Both the position numbers and the translations under genes were made by a program. A stretch of DNA of 64,000 bases from Planctomycetota bacterium (GTDB lineage: Bacteria > Planctomycetota > Phycisphaerae > Phycisphaerales > SM1A02), in assembly GCA_022574595.1 (NCBI GenBank), contig JACZRS010000006.1, positions 103,848 to 167,847 on the forward strand, read 5' to 3'. The notes below the pieces were generated by a model. That model was not told where the DNA came from and searched no databases. It saw only the letters and a program-made list of their open reading frames with translations. Every line of letters begins with the position of its first letter. The first letter of the stretch is position 1. Of the stretch, positions 40,924-41,993 are shown one piece after another.

Positions 40924-41258
40924 CTGCTTATTTAGAGTTAAACCAGTGAGAAAAGACGCTTAGAAATAGCGAATCATGCAATAATGATTTGCCCCTTGGC
41001 CGATAGGAAGGTAATGTATTGGCCAGAGCCGTATGTTTGCGGCTCTGTGGAATAAGATGTCGCCGCCATAATGCAGCGACATTGGAGTATTGATGCTACA
41101 GCTACGACAGCACACATCTCAACTGCGCAGGATTGCCTAGGGCATGCCCCTCAATACTGCTAAGATCACCAAGTTAACAACATGTATTACCGCCGCCTTC
41201 GGCTGGGCACCGGTCGTATGTCAACATCTACCAGCCGAATAAATAGAGGATTTAAACC
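40924..41258 (+). ncRNA. Candidate structured RNA leader of infC
   Basis: The 335-bp thrS-infC spacer contains successive perfect helices without T-runs. AGAGCCG (41025-41031) pairs with CGGCTCT (41040-41046), ATGTCGC (41057-41063) with GCGACAT (41076-41082) and AGTATTGA (41086-41093) with TCAATACT (41151-41158). The last encloses a 57-nt domain with a GGGCATGCCC palindrome. This looks like a folded 5' leader rather than a terminator, and would fit the known habit of infC/rpmI/rplT operons to carry regulatory leaders. I do not recognise an established family. Confidence 0.45.
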
Positions 41259-41993
41259 ATAGCACGCAGACGATTTCTTCGCCCTGATAGGGCACCAACC
41301 GGACCACGTGTAAACGACCGCATACGAATCAGTCCGGTCAGACTTATTAATGAAAACGACGAAATGCTAGGCGTCATCGAGATCGAAGAGGCCAGGCGTC
41401 TTGCACGGGAAGCCGAACTCGATCTTGTTGAGGTTTCTTCTACTTCTACTCCTCCGGTAGTACGGATCATGGACTTTGGAAAGTGGAAGTATGAGCAGTC
41501 CAAAAAGGACCGTGCCAACAAGGCGAAATCCAAAGGCACTGAGCTAAAGGAAATTCGTATGGGACGATCAATGAAGATTGATCCCCACGATATCGAAATC
41601 CGCTTGGATCAAGCACGCCGCTTTCTAATGGAAGGACACAAGGTTCAGATTGTTCAGAACTTCCGTGGCCGAGAAATGATGCACAGACAGCGTGGCCATG
41701 ATCGTATGAAAGATATCATTGATTCTCTATCTGATGTGGGAAAGGTCGAGACCTCGCCGCGCTTTGCGGGTAGGCGCATGACAATGATCATCGCACCGGA
41801 TCGAGCAAAGATTCAGCGCATTAAGGGTCAACAGGAAGCTAATAAACAAACCGCCGACAAACCTGCTGCTGATGGTGACAAAGTTGATGTTTCAAAGCCA
41901 AAAAAGGCCCAAGCAAGTAGTCCACCAGTTCCAAGTAATGCAGAGACTAAAGTTGCTGAGACACCTACTCCAGTAGAACACGCGGACGCATAG
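41259..41993 (+). CDS. infC: Translation initiation factor IF-3, starting at ATA
   Basis: The frame encodes a 244-residue IF-3. N-domain: RVNDRIRISPVRLINENDEMLGV, then EEARRLAREAELDLVEVSS. C-domain: GTELKEIRMGRSMKIDPHDI and the rest to KIQRIK. The first ATG (41364) is 35 codons inside the conserved N-domain, and an in-frame TAA sits at 41253-41255. No ATG, GTG or TTG lies between. The only sensible start is ATA at 41259, with GAGG nine bases upstream. Non-AUG starts let IF-3 discriminate against its own mRNA. A 55-residue Ala/Lys/Pro-rich tail beyond the usual end is an extra. Confidence 0.92.
   Translation: MARRRFLRPDRAPTGPRVNDRIRISPVRLINENDEMLGVIEIEEARRLAREAELDLVEVSSTSTPPVVRIMDFGKWKYEQSKKDRANKAKSKGTELKEIRMGRSMKIDPHDIEIRLDQARRFLMEGHKVQIVQNFRGREMMHRQRGHDRMKDIIDSLSDVGKVETSPRFAGRRMTMIIAPDRAKIQRIKGQQEANKQTADKPAADGDKVDVSKPKKAQASSPPVPSNAETKVAETPTPVEHADA

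What the first reader, a model, noticed from the sequence alone, without database searches (positions are those of the whole stretch)
41253..41370. infC starts at an AUA codon
The IF-3 N-domain is encoded from about 41262, but no ATG, GTG or TTG occurs between the in-frame TAA (41253-41255) and the ATG at 41364 inside the conserved domain. GAGG lies nine bases before ATA at 41259. Established knowledge: infC in E. coli starts at AUU, which lets IF-3 repress its own translation. AUA would be another member of this device.
Basis: partly seen in the sequence, partly recalled or inferred. Interest (0 to 1): 0.55.

Follow-up and report, generated by a model that had tools for sequence, protein, structure and literature searches.

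The report
infC starting at an AUA codon
[quoted passage not shown] just upstream lies a conserved RNA fold that matched no known RNA family.

Summary
The one infC found in this genome (41259-41993, +) has an in-frame TAA at 41253-41255, no ATG/GTG/TTG before 41364, and a Shine-Dalgarno GAGGA at 41246-41250 before ATA at 41259. ATG 41364 lies inside the IF3 N-domain. In the relatives read, the aligned codon is AUC, AUU or AUA in 138 of 140 distinct loci (ATG once, CTG once) and in 31 of 31 called in a second draw. Coding constraint starts right after this codon; the stop just upstream is shared with the nearest relatives. AUA needs six changes on the IF3 tree, at least four firmly. AUA as infC start is already shown by ribosome profiling in S. 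aureus (PMC13009471), AUU/AUC in other bacteria: a new member of a known kind. Feedback by IF3 is inferred, not shown. Unexpected: a conserved H-type pseudoknot directly 5' of the infC Shine-Dalgarno in part of the relatives, supported by shuffles, later-drawn leaders, paired changes and one blind model hit, with no Rfam match in what was searched.

The parts
41259..41993 (+). infC (IF3), read from AUA at 41259 to the stop
   Evidence: IF3_N E 1.5e-27 and IF3_C E 2.8e-27; only IF3_N match found in the genome; the best three solved IF3 chains match from residue 16 or 18 to 181-182
41259..41261 (+). AUA start codon
   Evidence: aligned to AUC/AUU/AUA in 138 of 140 distinct loci, window included
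41246..41250 (+). Shine-Dalgarno GAGGA
   Evidence: complementary to the genome's own 16S 3' end GGATCACCTCCTT; SD-type codon conserved at -4 in 104 aligned loci
41253..41255 (+). in-frame TAA that excludes an upstream start
   Evidence: TGA at the same place in L032-L034
41189..41214 (+). leader hairpin H1 (arms 41189-41197 and 41206-41214; in the window 7 pairs around a 2x2 internal loop)
   Evidence: H1 pair changes
41198..41205 (+). H1 loop, 5' strand of pseudoknot helix H2
41232..41239 (+). 3' strand of pseudoknot helix H2, six bases before GAGGA
   Evidence: similar geometry in relatives

Best explanation
infC of this planctomycete is translated from AUA at 41259, with GAGGA as Shine-Dalgarno. 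AUA (like the AUC and AUU of its relatives) pairs with initiator tRNA at only two positions, so the start is inefficient and is rejected by IF3 (general knowledge). When IF3 is abundant it represses its own synthesis; when it is scarce the start is used more: a negative feedback loop. Shown here: the anatomy, the conservation of a non-AUG start, and the repeated interchange AUC/AUU/AUA with AUG almost absent. Inferred from other bacteria: the feedback. In this family a conserved pseudoknot just 5' of the SD probably adds a second control on ribosome access; its ligand, if any, is unknown.
For: No canonical codon can start the gene without losing part of the N-domain. Aligned codon: ATC 117, ATT 14, ATA 7, CTG 1, ATG 1 of 140 distinct loci (with L187 set from CTG to ATC); later draw: ATC 25, ATT 6 of 31 called. 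68 of 140 have no ATG/GTG/TTG at all between the upstream stop and domain residue 18. SD pairing of -5 or better at 137 of 141 ATH codons at -16..-20, against 24 of 121 other in-frame ATH and 19 of 116 in-frame ATG/GTG/TTG. Codon-wise conservation starts at the codon after ATH, with in-frame stops at -2 and -5 in 17 of 104 each. As a contrast, the codon aligned to Met1 of rplT is ATG in 30 of 30 loci (read by alignment, without the SD rule). AUA is 7 of 137 AUH starts (6 of them certain: the ATA of L012 ties with an ATT two codons on) against 22 of 1790 Ile codons in the gene bodies (Fisher p 0.003, rows not independent), fitting a codon not read as Ile. AUA placements need 6 changes on the tree, at least 4 forced by strong branches. 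Published: S. aureus infC starts at AUA by Ribo-Ret (PMC13009471, passages); E. coli ATT with IF3 feedback and Streptomyces ATC (PMC5472188, passages); Listeria ATT (PMC13068326, passage).
Against: No protein or ribosome data for this organism. 72 of 140 loci do have some in-frame canonical codon between stop and domain. A cruder rule (strongest SD of seven start codons, no position prior) gave ATH for 126 of 140, with 6 ATG, 5 CTG, 3 GTG; five of the six ATG calls are a Met 7 codons before the anchor, inside the conserved N-terminus. L171 has switched to ATG, so the non-AUG start is dispensable. The feedback was seen tested in no planctomycete in the papers found.
Confidence: 0.85

Rival explanations
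1. Translation starts at ATG 41364 and makes an IF3 that lacks the beginning of its N-domain.
For: It is the first canonical start in frame.
Against: It lies inside IF3_N; the upstream codons are conserved codon by codon in relatives; there is a good SD at the ATH place and on average a weak one at in-frame canonical codons of the leaders.
Confidence: 0.04
2. Sequencing or assembly error made the upstream stop or the ATA.
For: The genome is a draft in 31 contigs.
Against: The nearest relatives have a stop at the same place, and the relatives' ATC is just as non-canonical as ATA; AUA recurs in several places of the tree.
Confidence: 0.03
3. The start is non-AUG only to keep IF3 low (weak fixed start), with no feedback by IF3.
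For: Non-canonical starts of three other genes gave about 10%, at most 30%, of AUG in S. aureus reporters (PMC13009471, passages).
Against: The feedback is established for infC in E. coli (PMC5472188, passages), and conservation of AUH in this very gene is what feedback predicts.
Confidence: 0.15
4. The leader pseudoknot, not the start codon, is the main control of infC here (for example an r-protein or IF3 binding site); the AUH start is a relic.
For: Conserved pseudoknot in many leaders of the family.
Against: AUH is kept in other families of the order and is called in 35 of 54 loci outside it, where the pseudoknot is rare or not enriched.
Confidence: 0.1

Closest known systems
E. coli infC (AUU start, IF3 feedback)
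   Same: essential IF3 gene, non-AUG start with third-position mismatch, SD present
   Different: AUA instead of AUU; E. coli infC is clustered with rpmI-rplT (PMC10931766, passage), here rplT lies on another contig
Staphylococcus aureus infC (AUA start mapped by Ribo-Ret, PMC13009471)
   Same: the same gene with the same start codon
   Different: another phylum; mapped by experiment there, by comparison here; extended SD there, GAGGA here
Streptomyces infC (ATC start, PMC5472188)
   Same: AUH start of infC, ATC as in most relatives of the window
   Different: ATA in the window; no IF3 data here
E. coli bL20 pseudoknot operator and B. subtilis L20 leader (PMC10931766, passages)
   Same: RNA structure in the infC-rpmI-rplT region, in B. 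subtilis upstream of infC
   Different: here upstream of infC with rplT elsewhere; 0 of 30 rplT leaders score 30 or more; no Rfam match

Membership tests
infC with IF3-discriminated near-cognate start | gene encodes IF3 with both domains | tested here: met
infC with IF3-discriminated near-cognate start | no AUG/GUG/UUG available at the true N-terminus | tested here: met
infC with IF3-discriminated near-cognate start | AUU/AUC/AUA/CUG preceded by SD and conserved | tested here: met
infC with IF3-discriminated near-cognate start | synthesis falls as IF3 rises, lost with AUG | not testable with these tools
   needs reporters
L20-controlled infC leader or bL20 pseudoknot operator | match to an Rfam family | tested here: not met
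   no match in the window at gathering; in 12 relatives at E up to 2 one unrelated hit, P13, E 1
L20-controlled infC leader or bL20 pseudoknot operator | infC in one operon with rplT, or the same element before rplT | tested here: not met
   rplT on contig C19, infC on C25; no L20 in 107 planctomycete infC loci with flanks of up to about 1.5 kb; 0 of 30 rplT leaders score 30 or more. rpmI leaders were not tested
L20-controlled infC leader or bL20 pseudoknot operator | binding of L20 to the RNA | not testable with these tools
   needs binding assays

The most novel reading that the evidence does not exclude
The infC leaders of this planctomycete family carry an H-type pseudoknot directly 5' of the SD for which my searches (Rfam; papers) gave no description. 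With the near-cognate start it forms a two-part control of IF3: the RNA fold gates ribosome access (perhaps with IF3 or a ribosomal protein as ligand) and the codon gates initiation, in a lineage where infC no longer lies beside rplT.
Probability: 0.5. Interest if true: 0.55.

Novelty: new member of a known kind. Interest (0 to 1): 0.35.

Why it matters
It shows by comparison, in a group for which I found no start-site data, that the rare-start device of infC is kept while the codon itself drifts among AUC, AUU and AUA and almost never becomes AUG. A gene finder limited to ATG, GTG and TTG would place this start wrongly (inference; PMC5472188, passages, reports this for Streptomyces). The leader pseudoknot, if confirmed, would be a new candidate regulator of an essential initiation factor.

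Tried and rejected
Ordinary folding of 41180-41330 gave no unusual stability (z 0.19); it cannot see pseudoknots. Promoter and terminator scans gave chance-level hits. Rfam gave nothing for the window and one chance-level hit in 12 relatives.

The L20 operator idea was tested and not supported. My rpmI finder found nothing, its motif being too narrow; an L35-like ORF does precede rplT in L259 (label recalled), so rpmI leaders were not tested.

H1 as a terminator of thrS was considered. It would not explain the complementarity of its loop to the strand before the SD; of 90 loci with at least 800 bases upstream, thrS was found upstream in the same direction in 56.

Model R1 also hit places that are not infC leaders: G009 (genes that read like his genes, label recalled), G041, G037 and two in G043 (judged for the last two genomes by contig alone); I take these as chance. 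27 of 37 genomes had no match at all. The pseudoknot is not enriched outside the order (2 of 48 at 30 or more, shuffles 2.6%) nor common in families f2, f5, f6.

Full report
Observation. The sequence is as described: TAA 41253-41255, ACC, ATA 41259, and no ATG, GTG or TTG in frame before 41364. GAGG is at 41246-41249. The frame read from ATA gives 244 residues with IF3_N at residues 18-86 and IF3_C at 95-180. It is the only IF3_N match found in the genome. The best three solved IF3 chains align from residue 16 or 18, so a start at 41364 would cut into the N-domain. The genome's own 16S ends in the usual anti-SD (the locus matches RF00177). Alone, the SD-ATA pair is not striking: 5.6% of about 1120 ATA trinucleotides in the window do as well.

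Comparison with relatives. infC loci came. All 59 matching genomes were read, but only a part of the 241 matching genomes, whose list was cut short. The named loci (best 80 of 103) are planctomycete by their titles; that they belong to the same order was not checked. After setting aside 21 actinobacterial loci (L091-L111), 168 sequences, window included, gave 142 distinct ones (exact repeats removed, near-copies kept); two without an upstream stop (L089, L153) were dropped. Of the 140 left, 94 are from G-handle genomes, window included, and 46 are named. 68 have no canonical start codon between the upstream in-frame stop and domain residue 18, and 72 have at least one. Choosing the SD-bearing codon nearest the consensus place out of seven start codons gives ATC 117, ATT 14, ATA 7, CTG 1 (L030), ATG 1 (L171) (L187 corrected from CTG to ATC). 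In L012 the ATA ties with an ATT two codons on. The cruder rule 'strongest SD wins' gives ATC 104, ATT 17, ATA 5, ATG 6, CTG 5, GTG 3. A second draw of 40 loci had 8 repeats and one without a call (L313: an ATC with SD -7.4 is there, but it lies closer to the domain than my range allowed); the other 31 are ATC 25 and ATT 6. One more locus, L319, found through the RNA model, starts at ATC.

Is this the start? Across 104 loci with the codon at -17 or -18, first- and second-position conservation begins at the codon after ATH. Upstream mainly the SD codon at -4 stands out, and in-frame stops are found at -2 and -5 in 17 of 104 each. SD pairing of -5 or better is found at 137 of 141 ATH codons at -16..-20, but at 24 of 121 other in-frame ATH and 19 of 116 in-frame canonical codons. 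An in-frame stop lies at most 3 codons before the called ATH in 18 of 126. As a contrast, the codon aligned to Met1 of rplT is ATG in 30 of 30 loci, 30 of the 35 matching genomes.

AUA itself. The window's nearest relatives (82% identity, L032) have ATC. AUA placements need 6 changes on the IF3 tree, with at least 4 forced by strong branches (138 of 140 rows, L012 and L130 too short; quick tree, many weak branches; gains and losses are not told apart). AUA is commoner at the start (7 of 137) than among Ile codons of the gene bodies (22 of 1790), as expected if it is not read by isoleucine tRNA; the rows are related, so the p value of 0.003 is only a guide. Outside the order, 54 of 56 sampled genomes were read (one had no match, one only fragments). 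Strongest-SD calls were ATT 14, ATC 13, ATA 8, CTG 4, ATG 4, GTG 3, TTG 3, none 5; these use the cruder rule, and the ATA of L206 is doubtful. So AUH is the commonest class in that sample (35 of 54) and AUA is not rare in it.

What is known. IF3 feedback through AUU in E. coli and the ATC start in Streptomyces are stated in PMC5472188 (passages). S. aureus infC starts at AUA by ribosome profiling (PMC13009471, passages). Listeria infC uses ATT (PMC13068326, passage). Searches for planctomycete infC starts or leaders (of which I saw listings and the starts of abstracts; one search listed 15 of 69) showed no title that treats them; PMC2864571, a survey of structured RNAs, does not mention infC (term search). 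The finding is therefore a new member of a known kind; the feedback is inferred.

A conserved leader fold. Comparing leaders suggested a hairpin H1 whose loop pairs (H2) with a strand just before the SD. A scanner over 100 bases before the start gave scores of 33 or more in 22.9% of 140 leaders, 0.9% of 1400 shuffles and 1.2% of 334 other windows of the same loci. After clustering it was 22 of 117, against 55 of 4680 shuffles and 156 of 4639 half-swapped leaders. In the leaders drawn later, 10 of 31 reach 30 against 42 of 1860 shuffles, and 4 of 31 reach 33 against 14 of 1860. Some of these resemble earlier leaders or each other; among 18 that do not, 5 reach 30 (58 of 1800 shuffles) and 3 reach 33 (27 of 1800). 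Paired changes: in the window's group 6 of 15 pairs change on both sides, 81.4% of cells paired against 24-59% when slid. Against it there: the H2 core is nearly invariant, the slide by +3 has almost the same covariation score (0.180 against 0.185), and 113 of 500 shuffles reach the count of pair types. In a second subgroup of 7 it is 6 of 14 pairs (24 of 500 shuffles reach this), 89.7% of cells paired against 33-51% when slid, covariation score reached by 0 of 500 shuffles, pair types by 417 of 500. Both structures were derived from members of these alignments, which favours them. A covariance model of the window's group with H2 only, searched in 37 genomes, matched in 10 (in each genome at most 128 first-look candidates were scored, in the window's genome 128 of 754). 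The best six matches lie at infC leaders, four of them in the model's own set. Of the other two, one is G022. The other, G010, is a genome in which the protein search had found no infC: its infC is cut off by the contig end, starts at ATC, and its leader has the fold with another H2 sequence (score 39). In the window's genome the infC leader is the only match among the candidates scored.

Limits of the fold. In the window H1 is imperfect and the score is 35. At 30 or more the fold is seen in 22 of 57 leaders of the window's family, 4 of 6 of f4 and 21 of 46 named relatives, but in 3 of 31 of f2, 1 of 22 of f6, 0 of 8 of f5 and 0 of 1 of f3; outside the order it is not enriched. Ordinary folding shows nothing unusual. 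No Rfam family matches in what was searched. It does not reach 30 before rplT in any of 30 loci, and none of 107 planctomycete infC loci has L20 within its flanks, while 21 of 21 actinobacterial ones do. Its ligand and function are unknown; gating of ribosome access is my inference.

Noticed in passing
41189-41239: Conserved H-type pseudoknot in infC leaders of the window's family, directly 5' of the SD; no Rfam match in what was searched.
   Followed up: yes
L259 (G000:C19) and window 41259-41993: infC is separated from rplT: rplT with an L35-like ORF before it lies on another contig; in the window thrS precedes infC and a phosphoesterase gene follows.
   Followed up: partly
41805-41993: IF3 has a C-terminal tail of about 60 residues, rich in Lys, Ala and Pro, beyond the part matched by most solved IF3 chains (residue 182).
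   Followed up: no
L030 and L171: Two relatives left the AUH class: L030 appears to start at CTG, L171 at ATG with a strong SD.
   Followed up: partly
L091-L111: Micrococcaceae relatives have L20 near infC, and their IF3 appears to start near 'ISEPRINER', probably at ATT/ATC.
   Followed up: no
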